NCBI RefSeq assembly: GCF_010983895.1
Contig: NZ_CP048836.1
Coordinates: forward strand, 1,736,001 to 1,800,000
Length of the DNA: 64,000 nucleotides
Direction: 5' to 3'
Source of the DNA: Nitrogeniibacter mangrovi
GTDB taxonomy: Bacteria > Pseudomonadota > Gammaproteobacteria > Burkholderiales > Rhodocyclaceae
Part shown: positions 29,746 through 51,303 of the stretch, piece after piece
How positions within the stretch are numbered: the first letter of the stretch is position 1
Layout: each line of letters opens with the position of its first letter
Program-made: the position numbers and the translations under genes
Notes under the pieces: generated by a model
The model's input: the letters and a program-made list of their open reading frames with translations, nothing else
Told to the model about the DNA's origin: nothing
Database searches by the model: none

Positions 29746-32351
29746 TTGCCTCCGTGCAGGTTCAGGCGCAGCACGCCGTGCTCGGGGAAGTTCGGATCGT
29801 TGTCGAGGCGGGCGATCTCCAGCCGCGCCAGGGGCAGGAAGCCCTGCGCCAGCGGCACCGGATCGTCCTGCCCCTGGCGCTGGAACACGGTCACCTGCAC
29901 CGAGTCGACCCCGGCCACGGTGCGGGCGGCGGCGTAGAGCGGGCTCAGGAACACGGTCTGGCCGAAGCTGAAGTTGTCCGCATGGAACAGGCCGCGGGTG
30001 CCGTCGGCGCGGATCCGGCTGCCGAGCACGTCGAGCAGGCCCTGGCGCACGTCGCTGCGGAAATAGGCGGGGCTCACGCACACCTCCAGTTCGATTTCCA
30101 GCGATACGTACTGCGGATCGTTCACCGCCAGGTCGTGGCCGGCCATGCGGTAGCGATCCAGGTGGGTGACCACGGTGTCGGCGAACTCGGGCGTGACCGG
30201 CGCGCCGCCGTCGCGGTCGACGGTGGTGAACACCGTGTGCCAGCTGCCGGTCCAGCGCAGGCGGGCGGCGGCCCGCTGCACGCCGTCGAGCCGCTCGGTG
30301 ACTGCGGCGTAGTCGGCCGGCGTGACCGCGCGCTCCTGCACGCGGAAGGCGTGGGGCGCCCGGCGGCGTACCTGGGCGGCGGTTTCCGGCGCGGTGCCGC
30401 CGGTGGCCGGCAGGGGGTTGCGCACCGCGTCGATCTGGCCGAGGGCGGTCAGCGCATGGGCGATGCTGTCGGCGCCCACGTTGCCCTCCGGCCCGTTGCC
30501 GACCCGGTAGTCGGCCTCGAACACGGTGCCCGCGTCGGGCCGCTGGCCGAGCACATCGTCGCCGAAGCGCAGGGCGGCGGTGCCGTCGGCTTCGGTCTCG
30601 AGCACGAAGTGGCGATCGGTGGCGTGGCTGGAGAGCAGGTCGCGGGCCGCGGTCCAGGGCGCTTCGGAGGCAGCGTTGAGGGTGACCACGGGCACCGCGT
30701 CGGCGGTGCGCCAGCGCAGCGCGGCGTGGGCTGGGGCGGTGGCGTCGAAGGCGACCCGCTCGCTACGCGTCACGCCGTCTTCCACCGTGTGCCGCAGCAC
30801 CGTGCCCTGGTGGGTGACCGGGCCCTCGGCGAGCGTCGGCGCAAAGCGCGGCGGCAGCGGTTCCGGCGCGCGGCGCTGGCAGCTGTCGGTGCCGGTGGCC
30901 GGGTAGTGCAGGCGCGCCGCCGGCACCTCGCCGAGCGCCTCGCCGACGCGGGTTTCACCATGGTCCACCAACAGGTTATTGCCCAGCGCGATGCTCACGT
31001 TTTCGATCAGCAGGCTGCCGTGGGCTTCGTCGGTCTCGGCGGACAGGCACAGCGGGAAGGGCAGCGCGTCGTCGTCATGCCAGGCGATTTCGGTGATCGG
31101 GTGTACGGTGCCGTCGTCCGGGTCGGGCAGCGGATCGACCAGGGGTTCGGGCGGTGCGCCTTCACTCTCGGGCGGCATGAACGCGCGCACGCCGGTGAGC
31201 CGCACCGGGTGGCGATGGGCGGGGTCGGCGTCGCCGGGCTCGCCGGTGCGCGGCCCGAGCACTTCCTCGAAGATGAGCACGTCGCCGATGGCCAGCTCCG
31301 GCCAGTGGCCGCGCAGGGTGGCGGCGGTGGCACCCCGCGGCAGGCAGCACTTGTTGTCGCCCCAGGTGTAGACATCGAAGCGGTTGTGCTCGGCGCGCAG
31401 GGTGAGGCCGTGCATGGGTTCGAACACCAGCGCGCGGGCCTGGCGGGCGGCGCGCTCGGCCGCCGAGGCGGGCGTGATCACCGCCGGCAGTGTGGGCACG
31501 CGGGTGAGGAAGCGGATGTCGGCGGGCAGGTCGAAGGCCGGGCCGGAGACGTCCACATGCAGCCAGCCGCGGGCATTGCAGCCCTCGTGCATGCGGTAGT
31601 CCACCAGCAAGGCATGGCGGCGCAGGCTGGTGCGCTTGCGCGCGGTGTGCAGATAGGCCTCGGTGGTGATGGCGTCGAGCTGGTAGTGCTTGAGGTCGCC
31701 CACATAGGCGATCAGCTCGCCCAGGGTGGTGGCCAGGTCGGCCGGGCTGCGATCGCGCCAACCGGGCATCTGCTGGCTGAGGCGATCCATGATCAGCCGC
31801 CGCAGGCTGGCGTAGTCGCGCGCGAGGTAGTTCAGGTCGGGGGCGGGGGGCGGCTCGGTGGGGCAGTCGTGCACCGGCGCGCAGTCGAAGTCGCTGGGGC
31901 ATTCGACCTTGAAGCGGAAGTCCACCGCCGACAGGCGCGGGTCGAAGTCGGCCAGCGGCGCGTCGTTGTCCGGCCCCCGGCTCAGGCGCAGGCGGTAGGT
32001 GGAGAAGTCGCCCGTCGCGTCGGTGCGCACCAGCAGCACGTTGGCCGCATCCGGCAGCGCGGTGTAGAAGTCGCGCTCGGCATTGGGCAGGGGGGCGGGC
32101 GGGGCGTCGGCGGGGGCGACCCAGTCGATGCCGATGTGGCGGATGCGCTCGCCGCCGGTGATGGCGACGTTGGCGTCGGTGATGTCGCCGGGCACCGGCT
32201 TGAGCAGGCGCACCAGCAGGGTCTGCTGGCGTGGCGCGGTGGGCGGGGCGTCCAGGTCCAGCACCTCGAGCCAGTCGATGCCGTTGAGCGTCGCGTCGGC
32301 ATCGACCGCGGCGCGGCGGTTCTCCTCGCAGCAGGTATAGCGGGCGGTCAT
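29742..32351 (-). CDS. Baseplate assembly protein (gp6/J-like wedge)
   Basis: An 869-residue baseplate protein. Segments LNYLARDYASLRRLIMDRLSQ, DLATTLGELIAYVGDLKHYQLD and TEAYLHTARKRTSLRRHALL are the J-like N-terminal features; the C-terminal third (RVQERAVTPADYAAVTERLDGV, FGQTVFLSPLYAAARTVAGVDSV) matches the family too. Cys pairs near the N-terminus (YTCCEEN) and in the middle are present. It likely forms the wedge with the 1276-residue paralogue. Both ends overlap neighbours by ATGA. The ATG at 32351 is chosen over an upstream extension. Confidence 0.85.
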   Translation of the reverse strand: MTARYTCCEENRRAAVDADATLNGIDWLEVLDLDAPPTAPRQQTLLVRLLKPVPGDITDANVAITGGERIRHIGIDWVAPADAPPAPLPNAERDFYTALPDAANVLLVRTDATGDFSTYRLRLSRGPDNDAPLADFDPRLSAVDFRFKVECPSDFDCAPVHDCPTEPPPAPDLNYLARDYASLRRLIMDRLSQQMPGWRDRSPADLATTLGELIAYVGDLKHYQLDAITTEAYLHTARKRTSLRRHALLVDYRMHEGCNARGWLHVDVSGPAFDLPADIRFLTRVPTLPAVITPASAAERAARQARALVFEPMHGLTLRAEHNRFDVYTWGDNKCCLPRGATAATLRGHWPELAIGDVLIFEEVLGPRTGEPGDADPAHRHPVRLTGVRAFMPPESEGAPPEPLVDPLPDPDDGTVHPITEIAWHDDDALPFPLCLSAETDEAHGSLLIENVSIALGNNLLVDHGETRVGEALGEVPAARLHYPATGTDSCQRRAPEPLPPRFAPTLAEGPVTHQGTVLRHTVEDGVTRSERVAFDATAPAHAALRWRTADAVPVVTLNAASEAPWTAARDLLSSHATDRHFVLETEADGTAALRFGDDVLGQRPDAGTVFEADYRVGNGPEGNVGADSIAHALTALGQIDAVRNPLPATGGTAPETAAQVRRRAPHAFRVQERAVTPADYAAVTERLDGVQRAAARLRWTGSWHTVFTTVDRDGGAPVTPEFADTVVTHLDRYRMAGHDLAVNDPQYVSLEIELEVCVSPAYFRSDVRQGLLDVLGSRIRADGTRGLFHADNFSFGQTVFLSPLYAAARTVAGVDSVQVTVFQRQGQDDPVPLAQGFLPLARLEIARLDNDPNFPEHGVLRLNLHGGK

Positions 32352-32716
32352 GCGCCACCTCCTTGTACGAAGGTGTCGGTCTGGCGGGTGTCGCTGCGGC
32401 GGATGCGGTAGGTGACCGCTACCGACAGGCGCGCTTCGACCGCCTCGACCTGCACCGCTTCGACGGTGATCAGATCGGCCAGCCATTGCTGCAGTGCGCT
32501 CTGGACGAGGAACTGGGTGGTCGCCGCCAGCTCCGGGCTGTTGGGCGCGAACACCAGCTCGCGCAGGCCGCTGCCGAACTCGGGCCGCATCACCCGTTCG
32601 CCCGGCGCGGTGAACAACACCTGCTCGATGAGCCCGCGGATCCAGGTGGCCTCGTCGGCCTCGCGGGTGCGGCCGCGGCCGTCGAACTGGTAGGGGAAGT
32701 GCACACGTGTGGTCAT
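32348..32716 (-). CDS. Baseplate protein gp25/gpW family
   Basis: A 122-residue protein of the T4 gp25 / P2 gpW lysozyme-like baseplate family, which starts sheath polymerisation. The core WIRGLIEQVLFTAPGERVMRPEFGSGLRELVF contains the EFGSGL signature of the group. It lies between the PAAR-like tip gene (2 bases away) and the J-like wedge gene (ATGA overlap), the conserved eCIS order. Confidence 0.93.
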   Translation of the reverse strand: MTTRVHFPYQFDGRGRTREADEATWIRGLIEQVLFTAPGERVMRPEFGSGLRELVFAPNSPELAATTQFLVQSALQQWLADLITVEAVQVEAVEARLSVAVTYRIRRSDTRQTDTFVQGGGA

Positions 32717-32718
32717 GG

Positions 32719-33298: not shown

Positions 33299-33811
33299 TC
33301 ATATGACCGTGAATGCTCCGTTGTTGATGTCCACCGCCGGCCCCACCAGCGTGATCATCGCGCCCTTGCCGTTCTGGATGTAGATCCCGGTGTCATTGAC
33401 GATGATCGAGGCGCCGGTGGCGCTCTTGATCATGATGCCGCCGGTGGGGCCGGGCAGGTCGGAGATGGTGAGGCCGTTCTGCAGGATGGTCTGGAAGGTC
33501 ATGGCCTGCACGCCGGGCGGGGTGGCGCGGGCCAGCGCCGGCACGTCGGCGGCGCTGCCATAGAAGCAGCCCACCCAGATGGGTTTTTCCGGGTCCCCCT
33601 GCTCGAACTCCACCCACACCCCGGAGCCGATCTCGGGCAGGGCGAACACGCCGTTCTGGATGCCGGCCACCGGCACGCAGGGCATGGCCCAATTGACCAT
33701 GCCGAGGCCGGCCACGTCGAGCACCTGGACCTGGATGCGCCCCTGTTGCAGCGGGTCGATGTTGTTGATCACCAGCCCGCGGTACTTGCCGTAGAAGGTC
33801 TGATTGCTCAT
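33299..33811 (-). CDS. Phage baseplate assembly protein V (spike)
   Basis: A 170-residue gpV-type spike protein. The OB-fold region (FYGKYRGLVINNIDPLQQGRIQV, then ALPEIGSGVWVEFEQGDPEKPIWVGCFYG) is followed by a short beta-strand tail (GGIMIKSATGASIIVNDTGI) that would form the trimeric needle. It corresponds to the gp5-like part of the central spike, here separate from the gpD-like hub. It overlaps the hub gene by 4 bases. Confidence 0.93.
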   Translation of the reverse strand: MSNQTFYGKYRGLVINNIDPLQQGRIQVQVLDVAGLGMVNWAMPCVPVAGIQNGVFALPEIGSGVWVEFEQGDPEKPIWVGCFYGSAADVPALARATPPGVQAMTFQTILQNGLTISDLPGPTGGIMIKSATGASIIVNDTGIYIQNGKGAMITLVGPAVDINNGAFTVI

Positions 33812-34947
33812 ACAGGCACCGTCGGCGTGATCGACACGAGGCCGTTGCGTGTCAGGTTGAAGCTTTGCCGGAACTTGCCGCGGCCGATGGTGCTGGTGAC
33901 GCTGCTCACGTAGTAGAGCCCGTCGTAGGCCACGCCCGCGCCGCGCACGCCCACCAGGCGCCGGGCCTTGAGCATGCGGCCGTAGCGCAGCACGTCGAGC
34001 GCGCCGCTGGCGGTCACCGCGTCCTGCGATTTTTTCGCCTCGTTGAGCCCCTTGGAGATGGCCTGCATGGGGTTGTCGCTGGCGGTGTCCTTCATCATCC
34101 TGATGTTGGCCAGCGGCGTGGGGATGAGGCCCAGCGGCGGTTGCAGGGGGTTGAGGTCGGGAATCGGGATCGGGATCGGCGCGCGGGTCAGCGGGTTCTG
34201 GATGAAGACGATCGGCAGCACGCCCTTGGTGGGGTCGAAGCTGAAGTTGAGCGACTCCACGTTGGTGAACGCGTCCATGTCGATGTTGAGCGCCGGCTGC
34301 GGCGGGCCGACCTTGATCTCGGGGCCGAAGTAGGCGACGTTGGTCATCGGCGCCGGGCCGGGCTCGATGTAGAACACATAGCCCACCTGCTCGGCCATCT
34401 GGCGGATGTAGGCCAGATCCGTGCCTTGCTGCGCGGGGACGCGCTCGACCGGGATGGGCACGTCGGGAAACAGCGCCGGGATGGGCAGCGGCACGATGCC
34501 GAAGGCGGCGTACTTGGCGCAGATCAGCGCCACCCGGGCCGAGATCGGCATGGCCGGGTAGGGCGTGCCGGAAAAGTCGAGCAGGTCCATCACCTTGGTC
34601 AGATCCTCGCCGGTGATGGTGATGCTGCCCGGCTGACCCTGCTGCCCGGCCTGCACTTCCACGTTCGTCATCACCCCGTCGAACACCGGCTCGGGCTTGC
34701 CTGCCAGGGTGACGATGAGCACCACCCGCAGCGGTGGTGTGCCGGCGCTGGTGTTGTTGCCGGCGGCGATGAGGAAAATGGTGTTGAGCTCGGACTTGCG
34801 GGTCACCTTGAAGCGCAGCTGAAAGCCGCTCACCGATCCGGCGGCGGTGGTGACCGTGGCCTCCTCGAGGGCGTCGATCATCATCGCCGGCACCGGGATC
34901 GGCGCGATCGGGCCGATCAGCAGGCTCAGGTGGACCGCGCTACTCAT
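33808..34947 (-). CDS. Baseplate hub protein, phage late control gene D-like (gp27-like)
   Basis: A 379-residue hub protein resembling gpD / gp27. ITITGEDLTKVMDLLDFSG, AQQGTDLAYIRQMAEQVGYVFYIEPGP and RMLKARRLVGVRGAGVAYDGLYYVSSVTST fit the family fold. It is rich in Pro/Ile segments (PIPIPIPDLNPLQPP). It would form the trimeric adaptor between tube and spike. It overlaps the gpV gene (4 bases) and the LysM gene (8 bases). Confidence 0.9.
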   Translation of the reverse strand: MSSAVHLSLLIGPIAPIPVPAMMIDALEEATVTTAAGSVSGFQLRFKVTRKSELNTIFLIAAGNNTSAGTPPLRVVLIVTLAGKPEPVFDGVMTNVEVQAGQQGQPGSITITGEDLTKVMDLLDFSGTPYPAMPISARVALICAKYAAFGIVPLPIPALFPDVPIPVERVPAQQGTDLAYIRQMAEQVGYVFYIEPGPAPMTNVAYFGPEIKVGPPQPALNIDMDAFTNVESLNFSFDPTKGVLPIVFIQNPLTRAPIPIPIPDLNPLQPPLGLIPTPLANIRMMKDTASDNPMQAISKGLNEAKKSQDAVTASGALDVLRYGRMLKARRLVGVRGAGVAYDGLYYVSSVTSTIGRGKFRQSFNLTRNGLVSITPTVPV

Positions 34948-35302: not shown

Positions 35303-35379
35303 TGGAGCGCCCTCGTGCCATGCGCGGTCCCTCCGAGCGGGACTTCGCGTTTTGCCGGTCGGTCGTGCACAGCGCTCAT
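35299..35379 (-). CDS. 26-codon mini-ORF linking two eCIS genes
   Basis: A 26-residue reading frame (MSAVHDRPAKREVPLGGTAH...) whose ATG overlaps the stop of the tube-initiator-like gene (ATGA) and whose TGA overlaps the ATG of the LysM gene (ATGA). This double overlap matches the coupling seen at most junctions of the operon, so it may be translated to carry ribosomes across. No function is assigned; it could be a coincidence of a short spacer. Confidence 0.4.
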   Translation of the reverse strand: MSAVHDRPAKREVPLGGTAHGTRALQ

Positions 35380-36032
35380 GGCAGCCCTCCGATACCCAGC
35401 GCGTCGAAGCCGAAGCTCGCCGCCTTGCCGGCCAGCTTCTCGCGCGATTGCAGATAGGCCATGAACAGCCCGCCGCCCTTGTGATCGAAGCCCAGATCGT
35501 CGATGGACAGGCTGCGCAGGCTCAGATTGACCTTGGCGTTGATCGGGTTGAGCGCGGTGTCGAAGGCCTCCTCGGTGACCGAGAACTCGGTGACCCGCAC
35601 CGGCACGATGCGCCCGGCGCCCCATACGAAGATCGGCAGGGCCGACTCCATGGGGGCGACCTCCAGGGTGCCGGCGTTGGCCAGCGCCTTGCGCGAGAGC
35701 AGGGCCTCGGCGCTGGGATTGACCAGCGCCTCGAGCACCGCCAGCTGCGGGGCGATGCCGGCCGCCACCACGGTGGCGTGCTGGTCGGGGAATTCCAGCT
35801 GGTCGGCCGCGTCGATGTCGGCTTCGAGGCGGAAGGTCTCCACCGCCGGGCCCTTGAGTCGCAGCGCCTCGGAGCGGTCCGCGCCTTCGCCCGCACCCTG
35901 CACCTGCAGCGAGCGGGTGAGCTTTTCCGGGTTGTACTGCAGCGCGATCACGCGCAGCACCCGGGCGTTGTCCGGATCGACCAGCACCAGGCCGGCCTTG
36001 ATGATGCGGGGCGCGCGGGGAAAGGAAGACAT
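35376..36032 (-). CDS. CIS tube-initiator-like protein
   Basis: A 218-residue protein. The N-terminus FPRAPRIIKAGLVLVDPDN then VIALQYNPEKLTRSLQVQG matches the contractile-injection-system tube-associated family that caps the hub and starts tube assembly (Afp7-like). The remainder is mixed alpha/beta and ends QSREKLAGKAASFGFDALGIGGLP. It sits between the DUF4157 gene (8-base gap) and the mini-ORF/LysM pair. Confidence 0.85.
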   Translation of the reverse strand: MSSFPRAPRIIKAGLVLVDPDNARVLRVIALQYNPEKLTRSLQVQGAGEGADRSEALRLKGPAVETFRLEADIDAADQLEFPDQHATVVAAGIAPQLAVLEALVNPSAEALLSRKALANAGTLEVAPMESALPIFVWGAGRIVPVRVTEFSVTEEAFDTALNPINAKVNLSLRSLSIDDLGFDHKGGGLFMAYLQSREKLAGKAASFGFDALGIGGLP

Positions 36033-36040: not shown

Positions 36041-37558
36041 CTAGAAGTGGAACTTCAGGCTGCCGCCGACATAGCTCGACGGGGGTTGATCGGTCGGCCC
36101 CGGCGGGGTGTCCGGGGTGGTCAGCGGGCCCTGGGCGCCGAACTCGGCCGAGAACACCGGTACCTCGCGGCACGGCGCGCCGACCCGTTCGATCTCCGAA
36201 TGCAGGTGGGCGATGGCCGAGACCACGTCGGCATAGCGCATGTGCGGCGCGAAGGTCCGCGACAGCTCGCTGGCGTCCGGATCGGGGGCGGGCGGGTTCT
36301 GCACCGCGCGGATCGCGTCGCGCAGCTGGTTGCCGGCCGAGCTCAGCGCCGCGCGCGCCGCCGCCGGGCTCACCGCCTGGCAGGTGGTGCGGGTGGTCTG
36401 CACCGTGAGCCCGGCCGAGCCGCGCCCCTCGGTGGTGATGCCGGCGCGCGCGATGATGCGCACATGGGGCACTGCGTTGATGGTGGCGGTGAAGGAGAAC
36501 TCGCTGGGGCTGGCATTGAGCGCGAACACTACCCGGCGTGCGCCGCGGAACGGCACCGGCAGCTGGATCGCCACCGAGGCGGGCAGGTCGATGGTGAAGG
36601 CCGCCGGGCCGAGGCTGAAGTGGATCGTGGTCGAGGGCAGCGACAATCCACCACCGCTGCCACTGCCGCTGCCGGCCGACGGTGCGGGCGCGGCACGCGG
36701 GCCGGCCGGCGCCCGGCGCGGTCCGGGTGCCGGTGGCGCCACGCGGCGGCCGAAGTTCGGTGTCAGGCACGGGTTGCCGCCCACCAGGGACGTGATCGGG
36801 ATGCCCGGGTGACAGGCGCGCCAGGCCTGCAGCAGCCGCGCCCGGGTGACCACCGCCGGGGCGCGCACGCTGAGGCGGCACAGGGCGCCCATGTCGCAGC
36901 TGGCTTCGGCGGTGCTCGCCTCGAAGGTGGCGTCGTCGCTGGCGGGCGCGTCCGGGTCCGGATCGCGACTGAGGCGTCGCCCGCCGCCGGACTGCTGCAC
37001 CACATGGGCGAGTTCATGGGCCAGCAGCTCACGGCCGGTGCGGGTGTCCGGCGCGTAGCGTCCGCGGGCGAACACCACATGGGTGCCCACGGTGTAGGCA
37101 TGGGCCGCCACCTCGCGGGCCGAGGCGGCGGCCTGCGCGTCGTCATGGATGCGCACCCGGGCGAAATCGTGGCCGAAACGGGATTCGAAGAAACGCCGCG
37201 TGGGCGCGGGCAGCGGCGTGCCGTGGCCACCCAGGGTGGTGTGCACGCTGGCCGGGGCCGTGGCCCCGGCACCGCCGGGGGTCGCCCGCCGACGCAGCTG
37301 CCCGGGGTGCGCCGGCGTTGGCGTCGCGGCGTCGCCGCCAAGCACCCGTGCCGCCGTGCGATCCGCATCGCGTTCGAGCGCATCGTCGGCAGGCCCGATG
37401 CGCAGCCCGGCGCTGGCCCCGAGGGCGTGCTTGCGCTGGCAGGCCTCGCACTCGCCATGGGTGCCGGCGCTGCCCCCGCAGGCACAGCGCCGCTGCAGCA
37501 CCGGCGATGCGGCGCAGTCGGTCGTGCTCGGGACGAAGGGCGTGGCCTGGCGAGTCAT
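36041..37558 (-). CDS. DUF4157 (eCIS core) protein, cargo candidate 3
   Basis: A 505-residue protein. A zinc-ribbon-like N-terminus (C25, C27, C37, C40 in RRCACGG...ECEACQRK) precedes the DUF4157 domain (~60-190), with RRFFESRFGHDFARVRIH and the metal-binding HELAHVVQQ (181-189). After a Pro/Gly/Ala/Ser linker, residues ~285-505 form a different, beta-rich region ending SYVGGSLKFHF, with alternating hydrophobic residues and a terminal Phe. DUF4157 proteins mark eCIS loci and are often exported or loaded cargo; its target is unknown. Confidence 0.85.
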   Translation of the reverse strand: MTRQATPFVPSTTDCAASPVLQRRCACGGSAGTHGECEACQRKHALGASAGLRIGPADDALERDADRTAARVLGGDAATPTPAHPGQLRRRATPGGAGATAPASVHTTLGGHGTPLPAPTRRFFESRFGHDFARVRIHDDAQAAASAREVAAHAYTVGTHVVFARGRYAPDTRTGRELLAHELAHVVQQSGGGRRLSRDPDPDAPASDDATFEASTAEASCDMGALCRLSVRAPAVVTRARLLQAWRACHPGIPITSLVGGNPCLTPNFGRRVAPPAPGPRRAPAGPRAAPAPSAGSGSGSGGGLSLPSTTIHFSLGPAAFTIDLPASVAIQLPVPFRGARRVVFALNASPSEFSFTATINAVPHVRIIARAGITTEGRGSAGLTVQTTRTTCQAVSPAAARAALSSAGNQLRDAIRAVQNPPAPDPDASELSRTFAPHMRYADVVSAIAHLHSEIERVGAPCREVPVFSAEFGAQGPLTTPDTPPGPTDQPPSSYVGGSLKFHF

Positions 37559-38334
37559 CGGCGGCGCCCCCGACCGCCCCGGCGGCGGCCGACCGGGATG
37601 TTGACCCGCGCCAGCCCGGCGGCGATGTCGGCTTCCCAGCGGGCCTGGGCGGCGGCGATGCAGCCGTGGCGGGTCTGGGCGTCGTAGCGGCGCTGCTGCT
37701 GGCTCAGGACGCGCCGCGCGCTGCGCAGCAACTGGGCGAAGTTCGGCGCCGCCGCGAGCATCCCGTTGGCCTTGCGCGCCATGGCGCAGCTGAGGTTGAA
37801 GTGGCCCTGTTCGTGGCGCAGCAGGCGGCCGGACTCGGCGACGCGGGTGTCGTGGCAGTCGCGAGCGACGATGGTGGCGCACTGGGCGCGCGAGTGCGCC
37901 TGGTCGCCCCGCGCCTGGGCGCCGGCCGGGCAGCCCCGGGGCGCGCCGGCGCTCATGCCGAAGCTGCCGCCGGCCCGTCCGGCCCGCGCCTCGCGATCGA
38001 AGAAGGCCTGGCACTGGCCGACGATCCGGTGGCAGCCGTTGTGCGCGGCGTTGCCCGCGTTGGCGAACTCGGGCTTGACCCACGAGCGGCCGGGAATGAA
38101 GAAGGCCTGCACGCCGCGGGTCTGCGGCTGGGTGTAGGGGGCGCAGCGGGCCAGGGCGGTGTTGATGGCGCGCTCGCGCAGGTCGGAGGCGGTCATGGCG
38201 CCGAAGCGGCTGCGACGCGGCGCGGCGCCGCTGAAATCCGCCCAGGTGAGGGCGCGCACCGGATCGCATTCGACCGGATCGGGCGGCGTGGTGGCGATGC
38301 AGGCGCGCTCGGCCTCGAGCGCGTCGCGATCCAT
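37555..38334 (-). CDS. DUF922-like metalloprotease module (3' part of frameshifted DUF4157 gene)
   Basis: Reading alone from the ATG at 38334 gives 259 residues; the same frame stays open upstream to the C run at 38461-38466 and gives a natural-looking linker (EPPVEETETPQAEAAGGHGG). Sequence hallmarks are ALTWADFSGAAPRRS and RLLRHEQGHFNLSCAMARKAN, with HEQGH at 174-178. This is the HExxH form and context of DUF922-type predicted zinc proteases. It is most simply the C-terminal half of a ~520-residue gene whose N-terminal half is 38193-39119. It overlaps the next DUF4157 gene by ATGA. Confidence 0.75.
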   Translation of the reverse strand: MDRDALEAERACIATTPPDPVECDPVRALTWADFSGAAPRRSRFGAMTASDLRERAINTALARCAPYTQPQTRGVQAFFIPGRSWVKPEFANAGNAAHNGCHRIVGQCQAFFDREARAGRAGGSFGMSAGAPRGCPAGAQARGDQAHSRAQCATIVARDCHDTRVAESGRLLRHEQGHFNLSCAMARKANGMLAAAPNFAQLLRSARRVLSQQQRRYDAQTRHGCIAAAQARWEADIAAGLARVNIPVGRRRGGRGRRR

Positions 38335-39119
38335 CCCGTGGGGGAGCGGTGCGCCTTCGATCGATGAATCGATCGGGGGCGGATAGAGCGCGCTGGCGGG
38401 GCCGCCATGACCGCCCGCGGCCTCGGCCTGCGGTGTTTCGGTCTCCTCGACCGGCGGCTCGGGGGGCGCATGGCCTCGTCCTCCGGCGGGTTGGCGCGCA
38501 CTTCGAGCTCGGGGGCGATGGCGCTGCGTTGCAAGGTACCGGTCTGCTGCACCACATGGGCCAGTTCATGCGCGAGCAGCGCCTGGCCGGCGGGGGTGGC
38601 GGGCGCGTAGCGGCCCTGGTTGAACACCACCTGGTGGCCCACCGTGTAGGCGTGGGCGGCCACGTCGCGGGCCGAGGCGGCGGCCGCGGCGTCGTGATGC
38701 ACCCGGACATGGCCGAAGTCGTGGCCGAAGCGGGTCTCGAAGAAGTGGCGGGTGGCGGCAGGCAGCGGCTCGCCGGAGGCGCGCAGGGTCGTGGTGACGC
38801 TGGCGGGCACGGGCCGGGCCGTCACCGTGCCCGCCGGGCGACGGCTCAGGCGCCCGGCGGCGTTGGTGAGCGCTACTCCGCCTTCGGGACGGCCGAGTAC
38901 GTGGTCGGCGGCGCGGTCGGCTTCCCGCTCCAGCGGATCGTTGCCGGCGCCGACCACGAGGCGGGCCTGCAGGCCGAGGGCGTCCTTGCGGCGGCAGGCC
39001 TCGCACTCGCCGTCCATGCCGGCCGAACCCCCGCAGGCACACTTGCGCTGCAGCGGTGCCACGTGCCAGGTGGCCTCCGCTGTCGCGCGGGTCGATGGGC
39101 CTTGCATGGATGCGGTCAT
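38193..39119 (-). CDS. DUF4157 (eCIS core) protein, cargo candidate 2, 5' part of frameshifted gene
   Basis: As read, 308 residues, of which the first ~220 are meaningful. A zinc-ribbon-like segment (C27, C29, C39, C42: RKCACGG...ECEACRRK) is followed by DUF4157 with HFFETRFGHDFGHVRVH and HELAHVVQQ (184-192). After residue ~218 the frame turns into Arg/Pro/Ser-rich nonsense-like sequence (PPSRRSRRPKHRRPRPR), whereas the other frame continues naturally into the DUF922 module. The unshifted 5' part is nearly parallel to the 505-residue neighbour in length and motif spacing. Confidence 0.75.
   Translation of the reverse strand: MTASMQGPSTRATAEATWHVAPLQRKCACGGSAGMDGECEACRRKDALGLQARLVVGAGNDPLEREADRAADHVLGRPEGGVALTNAAGRLSRRPAGTVTARPVPASVTTTLRASGEPLPAATRHFFETRFGHDFGHVRVHHDAAAAASARDVAAHAYTVGHQVVFNQGRYAPATPAGQALLAHELAHVVQQTGTLQRSAIAPELEVRANPPEDEAMRPPSRRSRRPKHRRPRPRAVMAAPPARSIRPRSIHRSKAHRSPTGWIATRSRPSAPASPPRRPIRSNAIRCAPSPGRISAAPRRVAAASAP
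38461..38466 (-). other. Frameshift site in a six-base C run (G run on the plus strand)
   Basis: The coding strand reads ATG CGC CCC CCG in frame A (38193-39119). One extra C, or a -1 slip on C CCC CCG, would continue as the DUF922 frame (37555). Homopolymer length error, a real inactivating or phase-variable mutation, or programmed slippage would all fit. Confidence 0.7.
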
Positions 39120-39162
39120 TGTCACTTGTGACTCCTGCTCAAAACAGCGCCGTCGAACCGGT

Positions 39163-40953
39163 CTAGGGGTTCGGGTGGCGGATCTTCCAGTGGCCCTCGC
39201 TGCCGTCGTCATCCTTCCAGCTGCCGAAGAGCGTGCCCGGCACGCCCGCAGTGCGGGTCGGGATGAAGGTCAGGGTGGCGTCGCCCCGCACGTCGCGTTC
39301 GCCGATGGTTTCCTTGGTTCTCAGCACCAGGGTCGAGCCGCGCACGACGCCGATGGCCGAGCCTTGCACCGTCGCGCCGCTGGACAGGGCGTAGCTGTAG
39401 GCGAAGGTGACCACGGCGGCAAACGGGTCCGCGGTCTCGTCGCTCATGTCGAAGTCCTGCACCCGCATGGCGCCGTCGATGGCCTGCTCCTTGCCGGAGG
39501 CGAAGATGATGCGGCCCTTCCAGCTGCCCGTGCCGGCCGAATCGAGGAAGGCGAGGAACTCGCGCCCGATCCGGTCTTCGTTGCGCTTGCGGAACGAGGA
39601 TTCGGCCTTGCCGACCACTAGCGGCACCGCGCCGGGAATGGTGGCCAGCTGGTTGAGGAAGCCGTCGTCCAGCACCTTGATGCAGCCGCTGGACACCGGA
39701 TCGGGCGCGACGCCGCCATGGAGGTAGAAACCGAAGCGCTGGACCTTGTCGCCCTTGCTTTCGTCCGGATTGACGTCCAGCGTGCCGCCGCCGCCGGGGC
39801 GGGTGATCTTGATGCGCAGGCTGCCCCAGCAGGTCTGGTTCTCCGGCCGGGTGACCGGTTGCGTCCCTTTCTTGATCGGGCGCACGTCGCCACACGCGAG
39901 GCCGACGCTCTGGCTGGCGTCGAGGTCGCGGTTCGAGACCGCCGGATTGATCTCGAAGCTGCCGTCGGGGATGGGCCCGTTGGCCTGCCGCGAAGTGGCC
40001 GCCTTGAGCATCGTCAGCGCTTCGAGCCGCTCGGCATGCGACATGTCGGCGCGGAAGTAGGCGTCGATCTCGGCCTTGGTGGTGAGGGTCCGGCCCTGCG
40101 CCTGGGCCAGGCCGACGATGAACTCCTCGACCGCCTCGAGCGATTCGATCGAGTATTTGCCCGAGACCGCGCTCGTGCTCGCGCAACTGCCGTCCGCGTG
40201 CTGCGCGCGCAGGCGGCCGCCGTCGAACTGCAGACGCGTCACCTGGGCCGGATCCAGCGGGGCTTCGCAAGCGGCGTCCGCGTCGGCGCCCGACCCGGTG
40301 TCGGGCGCGGGGGTGGCCGGCGCGCGCTGGACCAGCGCCGGGGCGCCCGACTGCTGGACCACGTGGGCCAGCTCGTGCGCCAGCAGGCGCCGGCCCGCGC
40401 GGGTGCCCGGCGCATAGTGGCCCGCGGCGAAGGCGAGGTCGTGGCCGACCGTGTAGGCACGGGCGTCGATGGCATGCGCAGAGGCGGCCGCCCGGGCGTC
40501 GGCATGGACGCGCACCTTGCTGAAGTCGTGACCGAAGCGCGGCTCGAAGAAAGCGCGCGTGGCCTGATCGAGCGGCTGCCCGGAGGCTTGCACGGTGTCG
40601 TGCACGATGGCCGGGGCGTGGTTCTGGACGCGGTGTTCGCCGCGTCGCGCGCGCAGGACGGCGCCCGACCGGAGCGCCCGGTGGCCATGGACATCGGTGT
40701 GCGTGCCCGACGACCGATGCATCGGCCGGCCGGGCGTGCGCAGAATCTGGCCGGCGATCCGGTCGGCCTCGCGTTCCAGCGGATCGTCGGCGGCACCGAT
40801 GGACAGCACACCGCAGGGGCCGGCGACAGGGTCGAGCCGAGTGTTTTCGCCGTCGCGGTGGGCCTCCGGCGCCGGATGGCCGCGGGCGGGCGCGGCGGAC
40901 GGATGGCCGGTCTGGGGCACTGCGGTGACGGCCCGGGTGGCGCGGGTGCTCAT
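39163..40953 (-). CDS. DUF4157 (eCIS core) protein with L,D-transpeptidase-like motif, cargo candidate 1
   Basis: A 596-residue protein. DUF4157 lies at ~55-205 with AFFEPRFGHDFSKVRVH and HELAHVVQQ (193-201), but the N-terminal zinc-ribbon Cys set of its two relatives is absent. A middle helical region (230-330) follows. Residues ~370-430 contain FYLHGGVAPDPVSSGCIKV (H412, S422, G423, C424), the H...SxGC arrangement of L,D-transpeptidase-like enzymes that attack peptidoglycan. The last ~120 residues look like a beta-sandwich ending DGSEGHWKIRHPNP. Function as a cell-wall-targeting cargo is inferred. Confidence 0.82.
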   Translation of the reverse strand: MSTRATRAVTAVPQTGHPSAAPARGHPAPEAHRDGENTRLDPVAGPCGVLSIGAADDPLEREADRIAGQILRTPGRPMHRSSGTHTDVHGHRALRSGAVLRARRGEHRVQNHAPAIVHDTVQASGQPLDQATRAFFEPRFGHDFSKVRVHADARAAASAHAIDARAYTVGHDLAFAAGHYAPGTRAGRRLLAHELAHVVQQSGAPALVQRAPATPAPDTGSGADADAACEAPLDPAQVTRLQFDGGRLRAQHADGSCASTSAVSGKYSIESLEAVEEFIVGLAQAQGRTLTTKAEIDAYFRADMSHAERLEALTMLKAATSRQANGPIPDGSFEINPAVSNRDLDASQSVGLACGDVRPIKKGTQPVTRPENQTCWGSLRIKITRPGGGGTLDVNPDESKGDKVQRFGFYLHGGVAPDPVSSGCIKVLDDGFLNQLATIPGAVPLVVGKAESSFRKRNEDRIGREFLAFLDSAGTGSWKGRIIFASGKEQAIDGAMRVQDFDMSDETADPFAAVVTFAYSYALSSGATVQGSAIGVVRGSTLVLRTKETIGERDVRGDATLTFIPTRTAGVPGTLFGSWKDDDGSEGHWKIRHPNP

Positions 40954-41191
40954 CGTGCCAGCCCCCGCAGGATGGGGCCGGCCAGCGCACCGCCCAGGGA
41001 CCGGCCTGCCGTGGTGCCGGTGTGCACGCGGCCGGCGTCTACCCGGCGCGTGTCCGTGCCCAGCGTGTTGGCCGCGGCGGGGTCGGCGAGCCGGCGCGCG
41101 AGCTCGGCGCGGACACCGGCGGCGACCGCGTCCGCGTCGCGGCGATCGATGCCCTGGAGCACCAGCGCGTCGATGTGGATGACGATCCGGG

Positions 41192-41195
<4 letters not shown>
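40950..41195 (-). CDS. Small conserved-type eCIS protein
   Basis: An 81-residue protein (from the ATG at 41195; a GTG two codons upstream is possible). It starts MTRIVIHIDALVLQGIDRRDADAVAAGVRAEL, a hydrophobic strand followed by a helix, and ends in a Gly/Ala/Arg-rich tail (GRSLGGALAGPILRGLAR). It sits between the AAA+ ATPase gene and the first DUF4157 gene with ATGA overlaps at both ends. I do not recognise a family; similar small proteins often lie next to DUF4157 genes, so a chaperone or loading role is possible but unproven. Confidence 0.7.
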
Positions 41196-43092
<1,897 letters not shown>

Positions 43093-43096
<4 letters not shown>

Positions 43097-44409
43097 GAGA
43101 AGGTCACCCGCAGGTCGAAGAACACCGGGGGCTCGGCGCTGCGGTCGACGATGGGGCTGTCGACGCCGTCGATGCGCAGCCGCAGCACCGGCGACGCGCC
43201 GGCGGGCACGTCGCGGGCGATGAAAGCGAGCGACGTGGTGGGCGCCACGAAGGGCTCGGGCAGCAGTTCGGTGGTGCCCATGAGCAGCGAGACCGTCTGC
43301 CCCGGGCGCAGGGCCGGGGTGAATTGCACCGTGAATTGCGCGTCCCCGTTGCCGTCGCGCGGCACCGGGGCGGCCGGCAGGGTGGTGATGTCGGGGGCGA
43401 TGACGGCAGCGAGCCGGTTGCTGGTCCGGGGGTTGAGCTCGTCCGGCATGACCAGGCGCACGCGGATGTCGTAGACCCCGACCGGGAAGTCGGCGGCGCT
43501 GGCGGCCGGCACGGTGAAGTCCAGGTGATCGGCGGCGCTGCTGCCGGTCGCGGCGAGCGTCTCGTCGATGTCGAAGCGGTCATTGCGCAGCCGCACGCTG
43601 CGGTTGGTGCCGTCCAGGTGATGACCGTTCAGACGCACATTCCCGCCCAGGCGGATCACCGGCTGGCGGCCGTCGGGTTCGACCGATTCGAGGGTCGGCA
43701 GGGGCGGCACCATGGACGGCGAGACCACCACGCCGCGCTCGCGCCCGGTGACCGGGTTGCGCTCGCCGCGCGAGAGCACCGGCAGGCTCGGGCGGGTGCT
43801 CTCGCGCGCCTCGATCAACACCACCGAGACCTGGTAGGCGGCGCTCGGGCGAAAGTGCGACTGGGTGGCGGTCCACAGCTTGGAGAGCTCCTCGCTGCCG
43901 AGGAACTGCGGCGTGATCTTGAGCGTTTCCACCTGGTCGGCGAGGCCGCAGTCGGCCAGCGCGCGCAGGCTGGCGGGCAGGTCGGTGCCCACGTCGGGCG
44001 AGGGGTTGAGTGCGGTGCGGATCATCTCGCGGGTGAGCACCGGGTATTCGTGCATCAACTGCATGGCGTAGCCGAGCAGGATTTCCCGGTGCAGGGGCTC
44101 GCTGCCGTAGGCGCTGATGAGGTAGTGCAGGTCGAGGGCCAGGGGCGCGTTGGTGAGCCGGTGGCGGCCTGAACCGTCGCGTGCGGGCAGGGCGTCGTTG
44201 CGCCAGCCGGTGTTGGGGCTGACCTGGTACAGGAAGATGTTCAGCTGCGTCGATTCGGTGCCCTCGGCGGGGATGACTCGGTCGGGCGCCAGCGTGCTCA
44301 CGGTGACGGTGCTGCCGGTCACGGCCGAGACGTCGTGATTCACCACGCCTTCGTTGAGGCGGTCGCGCAGCACGGCGGTGACGCCGGCGATGGCCAGGGC
44401 GGTGCTCAT
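43093..44409 (-). CDS. DUF4255 / Pvc16-type tail terminator protein
   Basis: A 438-residue protein. The N-terminal ~190 residues (ALAIAGVTAVLRDRLNEG, ESTQLNIFLYQVSPNTGWRND, LHYLISAYGSEPLHREILLGYAMQLMHE) are the DUF4255 domain of Afp16/Pvc16-like cap proteins that end tube and sheath growth. Residues ~230-438 add beta-sandwich, IPT-like segments (PVIRLGGNVRLNGHHLDGTNRSVRL). Afp16 is shorter, so the C-terminal part is an extension. It overlaps the ATPase gene by ATGA. Confidence 0.9.
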
Positions 44410-45879: not shown

Positions 45880-46404
45880 TCAGGCCGGTTCGGTGTAGCT
45901 CGGTTCGGACGGCTCGGTGACGTCGTAGTCGCGCTCCCAGCCCTCGTTCTCGAGCTTGATGGTCTGGATCGCCACGGCGTTGGCGTTGGCGTCGAGCTCG
46001 GGCAGGGCCTGATACTCCGACACCCAGCAGCGGAACACCTTGTAGGCGATGGCCAGCTGGCCGGCCTCGTTGTAGACCTCGATGATGAGGTCCTTGCGGA
46101 AGTCCTTGAGCGAGACCTCCGCCCCCAGGCCGGAACCGAAATTCCACACCTTGTTGGCCCACTGCTCGAACTCCACGTCGTGGGTGACGCCGCGCTCCAG
46201 CGTGATGGCCTCGAACTTGGTGCGCCCGGGGGACTTGCGGGTCATGGACGGGTCGCCGCCCTCGCGATGCTCGACCAGCTCGGTGCTGCGCTTGAGCGCC
46301 CCGACCTTGCTGACGCCGGCCACATAGCGGCCATCCCACTTCACCCGGAATTTGAAGTTCTTGTAAGGATCGAAGCGGTGGGTGTTGACGCTGAACTGTG
46401 CCAT
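45880..46404 (-). CDS. Contractile tail tube protein (gp19 family)
   Basis: A 174-residue inner tube protein. It begins MAQFSVNTHRFDPYKNFKFRVKWDGRYVAGVSKVG, with RKSPGRTKFEAITLERGVTHDVEFEQWANKVW in the middle and QTIKLENEGWERDYDV near the end, all typical of the gp19/Hcp-like tube fold of Afp- and PVC-like systems. A GAGGAG SD precedes the ATG. Only one tube gene is present. It is separated from the sheath gene by 287 bases containing large repeats. Confidence 0.95.
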   Translation of the reverse strand: MAQFSVNTHRFDPYKNFKFRVKWDGRYVAGVSKVGALKRSTELVEHREGGDPSMTRKSPGRTKFEAITLERGVTHDVEFEQWANKVWNFGSGLGAEVSLKDFRKDLIIEVYNEAGQLAIAYKVFRCWVSEYQALPELDANANAVAIQTIKLENEGWERDYDVTEPSEPSYTEPA

Positions 46405-46691: not shown

Positions 46692-48287
46692 TCATGCTTC
46701 AATCTGTCCCGCCATCTGCTGCAGCTTGATGACCACGAATTCGGCCGGCTTGAGCGGTGCGAAGCCGACGACGATGTTCACCACGCCGCGGTCGATGTCG
46801 TTCTGGGTGGTGGTTTCGCGATCGCATTTGACGAAGTAGGCGTCCTTGGCGCTGCTGCCCTGGAAGGCGCCCTGGCGGAACAGGGTCTGCATGAAGGCGC
46901 CGATGTTGAGGCGGATCTGCGCCCACAGCGGTTCGTCGTTGGGCTCGAACACGACCCACTGGGTGCCGCGAAACAGGCTCTCCTCGAGGAACAGGGCGAG
47001 CCGGCGCACCGGCACGTATTTCCATTCGGAGGCGAGCAGGTCGGCGCCGGCGAGCGTGCGCGAGCCCCACACCAGATGACCGGCCACCGGGAAGCTGCGC
47101 AGGCAGTTGAGGCCGACCGGGTTGAGGGTGCCGTTCTGGGCGTCGGTCATGGTGTAGGTGAGCCCCTGCACACCGGAGAACGAGGCGGCCAGGCCGGCCG
47201 GGGCTTTCCATACGCCGCGCTGCACGTCGGTGCGGGCGATGATGCCGGCGATGGCGCCGCAGGGGGCGAAGCTGGCGAGGCGGTTTTCCGACAGCGGGTC
47301 GGGCATGCGCAGGCGCGGGAAGTAGGCCATGGCGTTGATCGCGTCGTCGTTGCCGATGGTGCCGCGCAGCGCGTTGACGCCGGTCTCGGCGTCGGCGATG
47401 GCGGTGCTGGGGCTTGCGGTCCATGCCGCGGGCGGATCGACGATCACCATGGCGCGGCGGTCCTGGCAGTAGCTGGCGGCGGCAGCCCAGGTGGCCGGAT
47501 CCACGTCGGGCCAGCTGGCACCGGCGCCGCCCGGCGGGGTGTCGGAGTCCACGCCCAGCGGCGGGATGCACAGCAGGTTGAACAGGTCGGCGTCGTCGAG
47601 GGCGAAGATGCCGGTACGCGCGTTGGCGTCGCCCGTCACCTGCGTGTCGATCACCGGGCTGCCGTCGCCCGGGGTGCCGCCCGCGGCGACAGTGCCGTCG
47701 GTCGGGCTGGCGTCGGTCGGGCCGCTGGTGCGCACATTCACCAGCGCGGACTGCTCGTTGAGCACCGTGTCCACGAAGCGCTGACTGGCCGGGTCGGCGG
47801 AGACGTTGCGGAACATCTCCGAGGCGATCACGGTGGTGCCGCCGGGCTGGTCGAGCTCCTCGATGAGCAGGTTGAACAGCAGCGCGTCGGTGGTGTCGCG
47901 GGTGTCGTGGTCCACCGTGGCCTGCAGCGCCGCGCCCCAGGCGCCGGGGCTGGCCGCTTCGAGTTCCAGCGGGGTGCTGCTGGTCGCGAGGCTGATGGTG
48001 GCGGTGTCGGTGGCGACGGTGCCGTTGAACACGCGCACGATCAGCGCATCGCTGCCGCCGTGGCGGAAGAAGTGATTGACCGCCTGACTGAGCGGGGACG
48101 GCTGCCACAGGCCGCCGAAGATGCGGGTGAACTCGGCGAAGCTCTGGACCCGGACGGGGGTGTCCACCGGCCCGCGCAGGGTGCGGCCGATGAAGGCGGT
48201 GATGGAGGTGGCGACCCCCGTGATGGTGCGGACGCCGCTGGGAATCTCTTCGATGTAGACGCCAGGATAGGTCAGGGCGGATGGCAT
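46692..48287 (-). CDS. Contractile tail sheath protein
   Basis: A 531-residue sheath protein. The N-terminus (ALTYPGVYIEEIPSGVRTITGVATSITAFIGRT) is the universal sheath start; SQAVNHFFRHGGSDALIVRV follows, and the C-terminal handshake domain is seen in GSRTLAGADLLASEWKYVPVRRLALFLEESL, FEPNDEPLWAQIRLNIGAFM and ENEIA-like closing strands (FVVIKLQQMAGQ). Only one sheath paralogue exists, unlike Afp/PVC with three. It is the first gene of the leftward eCIS operon, with a GAGGAG SD; the ATG at 48287 gives the conserved N-terminus. Confidence 0.96.
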   Translation of the reverse strand: MPSALTYPGVYIEEIPSGVRTITGVATSITAFIGRTLRGPVDTPVRVQSFAEFTRIFGGLWQPSPLSQAVNHFFRHGGSDALIVRVFNGTVATDTATISLATSSTPLELEAASPGAWGAALQATVDHDTRDTTDALLFNLLIEELDQPGGTTVIASEMFRNVSADPASQRFVDTVLNEQSALVNVRTSGPTDASPTDGTVAAGGTPGDGSPVIDTQVTGDANARTGIFALDDADLFNLLCIPPLGVDSDTPPGGAGASWPDVDPATWAAAASYCQDRRAMVIVDPPAAWTASPSTAIADAETGVNALRGTIGNDDAINAMAYFPRLRMPDPLSENRLASFAPCGAIAGIIARTDVQRGVWKAPAGLAASFSGVQGLTYTMTDAQNGTLNPVGLNCLRSFPVAGHLVWGSRTLAGADLLASEWKYVPVRRLALFLEESLFRGTQWVVFEPNDEPLWAQIRLNIGAFMQTLFRQGAFQGSSAKDAYFVKCDRETTTQNDIDRGVVNIVVGFAPLKPAEFVVIKLQQMAGQIEA

Positions 48288-48821
48288 GGCATTGGCTCCT
48301 CGTTCCCAAATCGGCCGGCGAGGCGCCTGAACGACGGCTATGCGGGCCGGCATCGCAAAATAGGCGGCCGTCGCGACAGGGGGCGATAGCCGGGTGCAAC
48401 GATCAACGGCTCGAGCATTCACTGGTGGGGCGGCCACCGCGCGAGGCGGCGCTCGATGAGCTTTCTGTGGCGTGCCATGCGTTCGTTGGCGTATCGGCCA
48501 GGGAGGCTGTCGGGCGCGTTTTCAGCCTAGGAAGGATGCCATCCGGATTCAACCGGGATATGCGCGAGAGCGGCATGTGCCGGATGCCTCGGGCCGCGTG
48601 GGCCCGGCCGATCGATGCCATGGGCATGGCCTGCGAACGTCAGGGGTCGCGGGTGGAGGTCATTGATTTTTCAGCGACTGTCGTCCGGCACGAGAGCGCA
48701 TGACGGCTTTGGGTACCCGAAACGGGTGATGGCGTTCCGGCCCTGTCGATCGCCGGAAATATTGCAACAGGATGTGTTGCGCGTACGAACGGTCGGTGTA
48801 TTCCGCGGCGCTTTCGTGGCC
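48288..48821. other. 534-base intergenic region upstream of the eCIS sheath gene
   Basis: This gap lies between the sheath start and the 3' end of the sigma-54 regulator gene, both leftward. It must carry the eCIS promoter unless the operon is read through from the regulator. No convincing sigma-70 -35/-10 pair, sigma-54 site, RNA gene or conserved coding frame was found; only the SD GAGGAG near 48297 is clear. No terminator is visible after the regulator gene either. Confidence 0.5.
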
Positions 48822-50504
<1,683 letters not shown>

Positions 50505-50663
50505 CGTGTTGTCTCCTCGTGGGCGCGGCTTGTGTGGGGCTGTGCCGCGTCTCCTCTTATATCACCGAAGTCGTAGCGTCCTCCGTGTGATCGCGCAGGG
50601 CGGGAGTGCGGTGATGTCGTGTGCACGTGCACGATGCGCACGCGTCGATTTCTGAGTATGTTA

Positions 50664-50681
50664 ATTAATCTCGAGATTAAT
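50664..50681. promoter_or_regulatory. 18-bp palindrome containing TCTCGAGA, operator candidate of the ferredoxin gene
   Basis: A perfect palindrome ATTAATCTCGAGATTAAT lies in the dmpR-ferredoxin intergenic region, 16 bases before the ferredoxin ATG. Its core TCTCGAGA is shared with sites at 51304, 56149 and 59724 in the same cluster. A second perfect palindrome, GTGCACGTGCAC, lies at 50621-50632. A binding site for the GntR-family regulator encoded at 58865 is proposed. Confidence 0.6.
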
Positions 50682-50697
50682 GTCAGGTGCTTCGCGC

Positions 50698-51274: not shown

Positions 51275-51303
51275 CTCATAAAGCCATTCTTGGTTTGCCA
51301 GAA

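What the first reader, a model, noticed from the sequence alone, without database searches (positions are those of the whole stretch)
36041..40953. Three tandem DUF4157 proteins with a shared head and three unrelated C-terminal modules
All three have the GHDF...RVH and HELAHVVQQ core but then diverge: an L,D-transpeptidase-like module, a DUF922-like protease module and a beta-rich module ending in Phe. This is a polymorphic-toxin-like layout: one loading or processing head, variable payload. Two share a C-x-C/C-x2-C ribbon near the N-terminus; the third lacks it.
Basis: partly seen in the sequence, partly recalled or inferred. Interest (0 to 1): 0.75.

Follow-up and report, generated by a model that had tools for sequence, protein, structure and literature searches.

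The report
Swappable cargo genes in injection cluster
Three neighbouring genes in a bacterial phage-tail-like injection gene cluster share one front part and carry three different back parts; they look like interchangeable cargo of a kind already known, one of the three has a broken reading frame here, and related bacteria show fronts and backs being exchanged.

Summary
[quoted passage not shown] Their C-terminal parts show no sequence similarity. Corrections: the middle gene is not one reading frame (head and DUF922 module are in different frames, the switch lying between about 38475 and 38430), although six congeners and one other genus keep it in a single frame. The third head reads RVRIH, not RVRVH. 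The L,D-transpeptidase label is weak (Tlde1, 16.8 bits, cut-off 30.1).
Nine syntenic loci show a cargo bay between conserved AAA-ATPase and tube/hub genes. Slot 1's payload was found in no other genome searched. Slot 3's payload is shared by relatives, but rides on a different head here and on none in another genus. One head clade carries four payloads.
This fits the published picture of DUF4157 cargo with variable C-termini (AlgoCIS Cgo1/Cgo2; EAT6). So: a new member of a known kind. Toxicity, loading and slot 3's fold remain untested; both structure predictions failed.

The parts
39163..40953 (-). Slot 1: DUF4157 protein, 596 aa; ribbonless head (eCIS_core at residues 127-204), then a Tlde1/L,D-transpeptidase-like module (HGG...SSGC at residues 412-424) and a C-terminal extension of unknown fold
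   Evidence: Pfam eCIS_core 8.6e-32; Tlde1_dom E 0.0095, below cut-off; motif position. Payload found in 1 of 249 family genomes and 1 of 321 class genomes, its own each time.
38193..39119 (-). Slot 2 head: ribbon plus DUF4157 head; the reading frame leaves the conserved sequence at about 38475 and ends out of frame
   Evidence: Pfam eCIS_core 5.7e-31; frame switch by separate tblastn matches.
37555..38334 (-). Slot 2 payload: DUF922 module with HEQGH, in a different reading frame from its head (the frame is open from 38565)
   Evidence: Pfam DUF922 5.6e-06, 27.0 bits; 72-74% identical to five congeners from 38430 (38415 in one) down.
36041..37558 (-). Slot 3: ribbon plus DUF4157 head, then a lineage-specific payload with six cysteines shared by the eight aligned copies, ending GGSLKFHF
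   Evidence: Pfam eCIS_core 5.3e-33; payload 65-68% identical to six congeners and L076, alignment; head falls in the clade of slot-2 heads.
40950..41195 (-). Small conserved ORF (81 aa) at the upstream edge of the cargo bay; its stop overlaps slot 1's start
   Evidence: A similar ORF at the start of the bay in 7 of the 8 other syntenic loci (all but G714 by a motif search); no Pfam hit.
41192..43096 (-). AAA ATPase, upstream flank of the cargo bay (Pvc15/Afp15-like; name recalled)
   Evidence: Pfam AAA 1.2e-25, WHD 1.3e-11; 64-68% identical in 8 syntenic loci.
35376..36032 (-). CIS tube/tube-initiator-like protein, downstream flank of the cargo bay
   Evidence: CIS_tube 0.003, below cut-off; 76-86% identical in 10 relative stretches.
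33808..34947 (-). Putative spike hub (Afp8-like by position; name recalled)
   Evidence: No Pfam hit; 82-85% identical in 10 of 13 relative stretches.
33299..33811 (-). Spike protein, Phage_base_V
   Evidence: Pfam 9.5e-21.
46692..48437 (-). Sheath
   Evidence: Phage_sheath_1C 7.8e-10, Phage_sheath_1 1.4e-07, on 46692-48377.
45880..46404 (-). Tail tube, gp19-like
   Evidence: Phage_T4_gp19 3.4e-45.
43093..44409 (-). Pvc16-like protein
   Evidence: Pvc16_N 6.7e-49.
29742..32363 (-). Baseplate_J protein
   Evidence: Pfam 1.3e-11.

Best explanation
The three genes are cargo (effector) genes of an eCIS. They sit in a cargo bay between the AAA ATPase and the tube-initiator/hub genes. The shared DUF4157 head, with its optional cysteine ribbon, most likely docks each protein on the spike/tube complex or hands it to the AAA ATPase for loading into the tube lumen; the C-terminal module is the payload released on contraction. 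Slot 1's payload is probably a peptidoglycan-modifying L,D-transpeptidase/carboxypeptidase, slot 2's a DUF922 metalloprotease (function inferred from HExxH), and slot 3's a cysteine-rich module of unknown activity. Heads and payloads are exchanged between genes, with a junction just after HELAHVVQQ. As sequenced, slot 2 cannot make its full head-payload protein. Shown here: operon context, head homology, payload diversity, a head change on slot 3's payload, the frame break. Inferred: loading, injection, enzymatic activities, antibacterial target.
For: Heads and operon genes by Pfam. Both flanks are conserved (AAA 64-68%, tube-initiator-like 76-86%) while the bay contents differ among nine syntenic loci: LDT-like / DUF922 / slot-3 module (window); HEAIHH module / DUF922 / slot-3 module (five congeners complete, a sixth, G110, across two contigs); DUF922 / HEVLH module / small ORF / headless slot-3 module (G768); HEVLH module / small ORF / slot-3 module (L076); one unrelated HETGH cargo only (G145). 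A 12-row head clade (97/95) carries four payload types and holds the window's slot-3 head, whereas congeners' slot-3 heads form their own clade (100/100). No room for immunity genes: 43 nt, a 4-nt overlap and 8 nt. Published precedent, passages read: two AlgoCIS DUF4157 proteins with different C-termini fill the tube lumen; EAT6, a DUF4157 protein with a predicted L,D-transpeptidase, inhibits E. coli; a Streptomyces DUF4157 protein binds an adjacent cargo protein.
Against: No particle, loading or toxicity data. The LDT assignment is sub-threshold, and BLASTP and hhalign of the module against a true YkuD payload (L089) gave nothing usable. 'Zincin' for three relatives' modules rests on HExxH alone: two had no Pfam hit, the third (G145) a sub-threshold M90 match. 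Slot 3's payload is conserved in 8 of 10 genus genomes (one only partly), which would also fit an accessory structural role; against that, G145 lacks it with the flanking genes present. The origin of slot 1's head is unresolved in the tree. Published results against a simple toxin-by-protease picture: AlgoCIS Cgo1 inhibited growth independently of its HExxH motifs, and the passage says none of the tested bacterial strains were sensitive to the particles. NCBIfam and PHROGs gave no hit for the cargo proteins. Structure predictions uninformative.
Confidence: 0.74

Rival explanations
1. Slot 3's payload is not a toxin but a lineage-specific accessory or structural protein (adaptor, plug or chaperone) that works beside the tube initiator, with the DUF4157 head only as an optional addition.
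For: It is the last DUF4157-type cargo gene before the tube/hub genes in the window and in the relatives that have it whole; 66-96% identical to G060's copy; it persists without a head in G768, with its own start and a purine-rich stretch before it. Narrow spread: a profile search of the fetched loci (L035-L070, L076-L154, L172-L178) found it only in this lineage and L076.
Against: G145 has the same flanking genes (AAA 66%, tube-like 78%, hub 83% identical) but no slot 3, so it is dispensable there. In G060, G710, G711 and G768 a subtilase gene lies between it and the tube gene.
Confidence: 0.3
2. The frame break in slot 2 is a sequencing or assembly error and all three genes are intact in the organism.
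For: Both sides of the break keep the codon-position pattern of intact slot 3 (third-position differences 0.36-0.48, first and second 0.15-0.26) and 63-74% identity to five congeners, so no decay is visible; seven relatives read it in one frame.
Against: No reads are available; a recent true mutation would look the same. The genome is a single contig, 99.99% complete.
Confidence: 0.5
3. Slot 2 is a real split: head and DUF922 protein are made separately, the DUF922 module starting inside the gene and loaded in trans.
For: The DUF922 frame is open from 38565 with an ATG at 38334; the slot-3 module is naturally headless in G768; the literature suggests DUF4157 may act in trans (passage).
Against: All seven relatives compared have one frame; no start-site evidence.
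Confidence: 0.1
4. The genes belong to some other toxin delivery route (T6SS or contact-dependent polymorphic toxins) and are in the eCIS operon by chance.
For: DUF4157 is sometimes present in T6SS effectors (passage); the G145 payload matches a T6SS Tse3 N-terminal domain (34.9 bits, cut-off 27.2).
Against: All three are inside one operon of sheath, tube, spike, baseplate, AAA and Pvc16-like genes, and the bay's position is kept in 8 other loci. I did not search the genome for a T6SS.
Confidence: 0.03

Closest known systems
AlgoCIS cargo proteins Cgo1 and Cgo2 (PMC8894135; passages read)
   Same: DUF4157 proteins in one eCIS cluster with a similar disordered N-terminus, a common DUF4157 domain and different C-termini; one C-terminus is a predicted metalloprotease
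   Different: Two genes, not three; no sequence comparison made here; shown experimentally to fill the tube lumen, which is not shown here
EAT6 of Parafilimonas terrae, an eCIS-associated toxin (PMC8213781; table passage read)
   Same: DUF4157 within the protein and a predicted L,D-transpeptidase
   Different: Toxic to E. coli by test; no sequence comparison was made here, and the window's module has only a sub-threshold Tlde1 match
Tlde1a, T6SS effector (PMC9638812; passages read)
   Same: Weak profile match over residues 394-431 holding the His and Cys of the catalytic motif
   Different: No adjacent immunity gene here; Ser in place of the His before Gly-Cys (in Tlde1a, changing that His kept D-amino-acid exchange but weakened the other activities); eCIS rather than T6SS context
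DUF4157 protein Sle2 with cargo Sle1 of a Streptomyces CIS (PMC13277306; passages read)
   Same: DUF4157 protein beside a cargo gene in a CIS cluster
   Different: There the DUF4157 protein is a separate partner that binds the cargo; here the head is fused to the payload, except in G768 slot 3
L089, Nitrosomonadales bacterium FeB_15: DUF4157 plus YkuD
   Same: DUF4157 head with an L,D-transpeptidase domain (YkuD 5.9e-10)
   Different: True YkuD with SHGC; not alignable to the window's module

Membership tests
eCIS DUF4157 (eCIS_core) cargo/effector proteins | PF13699 domain above its cut-off | tested here: met
   107-117.5 bits against 22 for all three
eCIS DUF4157 (eCIS_core) cargo/effector proteins | Encoded in an eCIS operon | tested here: met
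   Sheath, tube, Pvc16, AAA, spike, gp25, Baseplate_J by Pfam
eCIS DUF4157 (eCIS_core) cargo/effector proteins | Variable C-terminal payload on a common head | tested here: met
   in the survey 173 of 176 C-termini were clustered and fall into 95 BLAST clusters, 74 of them singletons
eCIS DUF4157 (eCIS_core) cargo/effector proteins | Present in the particle lumen and lost on contraction | not testable with these tools
   Needs purified particles
Tlde1 / L,D-transpeptidase effectors (slot 1) | Profile match above cut-off | tested here: not met
   Tlde1_dom 16.8 bits, cut-off 30.1; no YkuD match listed
Tlde1 / L,D-transpeptidase effectors (slot 1) | Catalytic motif H...(S/T)HGC | tested here: inconclusive
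   First His and the Cys present, second His is Ser (motif from passages)
Tlde1 / L,D-transpeptidase effectors (slot 1) | L,D-transpeptidase fold | tested here: inconclusive
   Model pLDDT 40.2, not usable
Tlde1 / L,D-transpeptidase effectors (slot 1) | Adjacent immunity gene | tested here: not met
   Only 43 nt to the next gene; upstream is a small conserved ORF and the AAA gene. The small ORF was not tested for an immunity role
DUF922 (slot 2 payload) | Profile match at or above cut-off | tested here: met
   27.0 bits, cut-off 27; G060's copy 26.3, just below
DUF922 (slot 2 payload) | HExxH zinc motif | tested here: met
   HEQGH in the window, seven lineage copies, L116 and L105
Polymorphic toxins with cognate immunity genes | Immunity gene after each toxin | tested here: not met
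   No room between the genes

The most novel reading that the evidence does not exclude
Head and payload assort independently in this cargo bay: the same slot-3 payload occurs with a ribbon head (window), with ribbonless heads (congeners, Comamonadaceae) and with no head at all beside two headed neighbours (G768). If the headless form is still loaded, the DUF4157 head acts in trans or is not needed for loading, which would make this lineage a natural experiment on what the head does.
Probability: 0.25. Interest if true: 0.6.

Novelty: new member of a known kind. Interest (0 to 1): 0.36.

Why it matters
The role of the DUF4157 head is called elusive or still to be studied in the passages read. 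A closely related set of loci in which one payload is found with two head types and with none gives ready-made material for testing whether the head loads, processes or protects. The rest confirms a known layout in one more lineage.

Tried and rejected
Structure prediction of the slot-3 payload (two-row alignment, pLDDT 47.6) and of the slot-1 payload (single sequence, pLDDT 40.2): too poor to use. A Foldseek search with the slot-3 model gave no match at E <= 0.001 (best 0.12), and nothing is read from it.

PDB sequence searches with slot 1, the DUF922 piece and slot 3: 0 matches each at E <= 1. Viral contigs: no relative of the slot-1 payload or of the DUF922 piece. Plasmids: no match for the slot-3 and slot-1 payloads. 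NCBIfam (E <= 1) and PHROGs (E <= 0.01): nothing for the cargo proteins.

Weak matches of the slot-3 payload outside the lineage (E 7e-5 to 8e-4, in 3 of 321 class genomes and 2 of 297 family genomes) were looked at and set aside as proline-rich, short or chance. The DUF922 search over 250 order genomes found only itself and one weak match with a stop inside; it listed no congener, although six have the module, so that sample says little about spread.

Terminal Phe of slot 3 as an outer-membrane barrel signal (recalled idea): 15 of 175 closed C-termini end in Phe; not pursued. A shared G-W...G-W tail was seen in 2 of 176.

A first Pfam scan of the small ORF used an off-frame reference (protein 7) and is void; it was repeated in frame.

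Dropped before counts: of 176 heads, three were left out of the C-terminal clustering: the window's slot 2, one open-ended and one short. Heads were collected with an HExxH-type pattern, so heads without it were not counted; 4 of 79 loci gave none. The tree holds 60 heads from the named loci (the first 60 long enough, of 131 without L076), 27 lineage heads and 31 others.
Full report
What is there. The window lies at 1736001-1800000 of a 4.24 Mb single-contig genome; the organism was not identified. On the minus strand an eCIS operon runs from the sheath (46692-48437), tube (45880-46404), Pvc16-like (43093-44409) and AAA ATPase (41192-43096) genes to the tube-initiator-like (35376-36032), tail-X/LysM-like (34940-35302, weak match), hub-like (33808-34947, by position), spike (33299-33811), gp25 (32348-32839) and Baseplate_J (29742-32363) genes. 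Afp/Pvc names by position are recalled. Between the AAA and tube-initiator-like genes lie three genes with DUF4157 (Pfam: eCIS_core) heads, the only three matches in the genome; 0 of 14 control genomes have any.

Anatomy. Slot 1 (39163-40953) has a head without the cysteine ribbon, then a module with a sub-threshold Tlde1 match (16.8 bits, cut-off 30.1) and an HGG...SSGC motif at residues 412-424. Slot 2 has a ribbon and head in one frame (38193-39119) and a DUF922 module with HEQGH in another (37555-38334). Slot 3 (36041-37558) has a ribbon, a head and a payload of about 310 residues ending GGSLKFHF, with six cysteines shared by the eight aligned copies. Neighbouring genes touch: 43 nt, a 4-nt overlap and 8 nt, leaving no room for immunity genes.

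The broken frame. Seven relatives (six congeners, one other genus) have slot 2 in one frame. Against the window their proteins match in two frames, the head to 38475 (38472 with G710, 38496 with G110) and the payload from 38430 (lower with G710, G110 and G768). Codon-position differences from five congeners on both sides look like those of intact slot 3, so the break is recent or an error. I kept the pieces apart.

The cargo bay in relatives. In the genus 8 of 10 genomes have the head family, as do 34 of 150 family genomes. I compared nine syntenic loci, the window included. The flanks are conserved: AAA 64-68%, tube-initiator-like 76-86%, hub-like 82-85%. The contents are not. Five congeners (G060, G710, G711, G714, G715) have an HEAIHH module, DUF922 and the slot-3 module; G110 has the same modules on two contigs. 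G768, from another genus, has DUF922, an HEVLH module, a small ORF and a slot-3 module without any head. L076 (Comamonadaceae bacterium G21597-S1) has the HEVLH module, a small ORF and slot 3. G145, a congener, has one DUF4157 gene with an unrelated HETGH module and no slot 3. The HEAIHH and HEVLH modules have no Pfam hit; calling them zincins rests on the motif. G060, G710, G711 and G768 also carry a subtilase with a P-domain before the tube gene.

Module exchange. The window's slot-1 payload was found in no other genome searched: 1 of 249 family and 1 of 321 class genomes, both times its own, and in none of the other compared loci. Slot 3's payload is orthologous (65-68% to congeners and L076), found at strong E-values in 9 of 297 family genomes, its own included (two further weak matches set aside). 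Its head is not: 46% identity to G060's slot-3 head (113 columns) against 55-56% to slot-2 heads. In a 118-row tree the window's slot-3 head falls in a 12-row clade with slot-2 heads (97/95), and congeners' slot-3 heads form a 7-row clade (100/100). That 12-row clade carries DUF922, the HEVLH module, the G145 module and the slot-3 module. Limits: 117 columns, bootstrap not settled, and slot 1's head unresolved. Gene conversion from the slot-2 head would leave the same trace. In G768 the slot-3 protein begins with its own start and a relic of the linker; the only head motifs in the forward frames of that bay are those of its two neighbours.

Wider survey. In 79 named loci, 133 heads were found in 75; 51 have the ribbon. 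In the 43 heads of the window and the family loci 8 have it. Together 173 of 176 C-termini were clustered and fall into 95 BLAST clusters, 74 of them singletons. One (L089, Nitrosomonadales) has a true YkuD domain. DUF922 relatives occur in L116 and L105, the former with a sub-threshold DUF922 match and the latter with none.

Mechanism. Shown: operon context, shared heads, unrelated payloads, head change, frame break. From the literature, passages read: AlgoCIS DUF4157 proteins with different C-termini fill the tube, one lost and one reduced on contraction (PMC8894135); DUF4157 is a signature of eCIS toxins, its function called elusive, and an in-trans chaperone role is suggested (PMC11297309); 12 eCIS-associated toxins inhibit E. 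coli, many without immunity genes, EAT6 being a DUF4157 protein with a predicted L,D-transpeptidase (PMC8213781). Inferred: the three proteins are loaded into the tube through the head, and their payloads act in the target. A peptidoglycan enzyme and no immunity genes would fit an antibacterial particle made just before lysis, an idea given in that paper, but the enzyme label is weak.

Against this reading. No experiment. Slot 3 is more conserved than slot 1 and may be an accessory part; its absence from G145 argues otherwise. In AlgoCIS, Cgo1's growth inhibition did not need its HExxH motifs, and the passage says none of the tested bacterial strains were sensitive to the particles. Structure predictions failed, and the fold search gave nothing.

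Verdict. Real and well placed, but the layout is published. New here are the particular payload set, the frame break, and the record of one payload changing or losing its head. One full-text search for DUF4157 with effector, modular and recombination listed 7 papers; I read passages of three of them and saw only the listing of the rest, and saw no report of such a head change, which is a weak basis for saying it is not in print.

Noticed in passing
window 40950-41195: Small ORF (81 aa) between the AAA gene and the first cargo gene, with a similar ORF at the same place in 7 other loci; no Pfam family.
   Followed up: partly
window 48822-54583: A XylR/MobR-type sigma-54 activator next to a ferredoxin-like gene and two phenol hydroxylase-family genes: probably an aromatic degrader.
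   Followed up: no
window 20638-23805 and 23822-26410: Large eCIS-side proteins: one with DUF6519 and a weak beta-helix match, and an 862-residue ORF without any Pfam or PHROGs match.
   Followed up: no
L176 (G768) 4590-7200; L035 12434-15064; L172 2721-5345; L173 2475-5105: A subtilase with P-domain and a Lys/Ala-rich tail occupies an extra place in the cargo bay of four relatives, without a DUF4157 head.
   Followed up: partly
L045 3064-4665: DUF4157 protein in family genome G035 whose C-terminus looks by eye like a papain-fold (NlpC-like) enzyme; Pfam finds only the eCIS_core head.
   Followed up: partly
L178 6306-7250 (G710) and L140 9584-11581: DUF4157 heads followed by an OmpA-like domain (just below cut-off in G710, above it in L140).
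   Followed up: no
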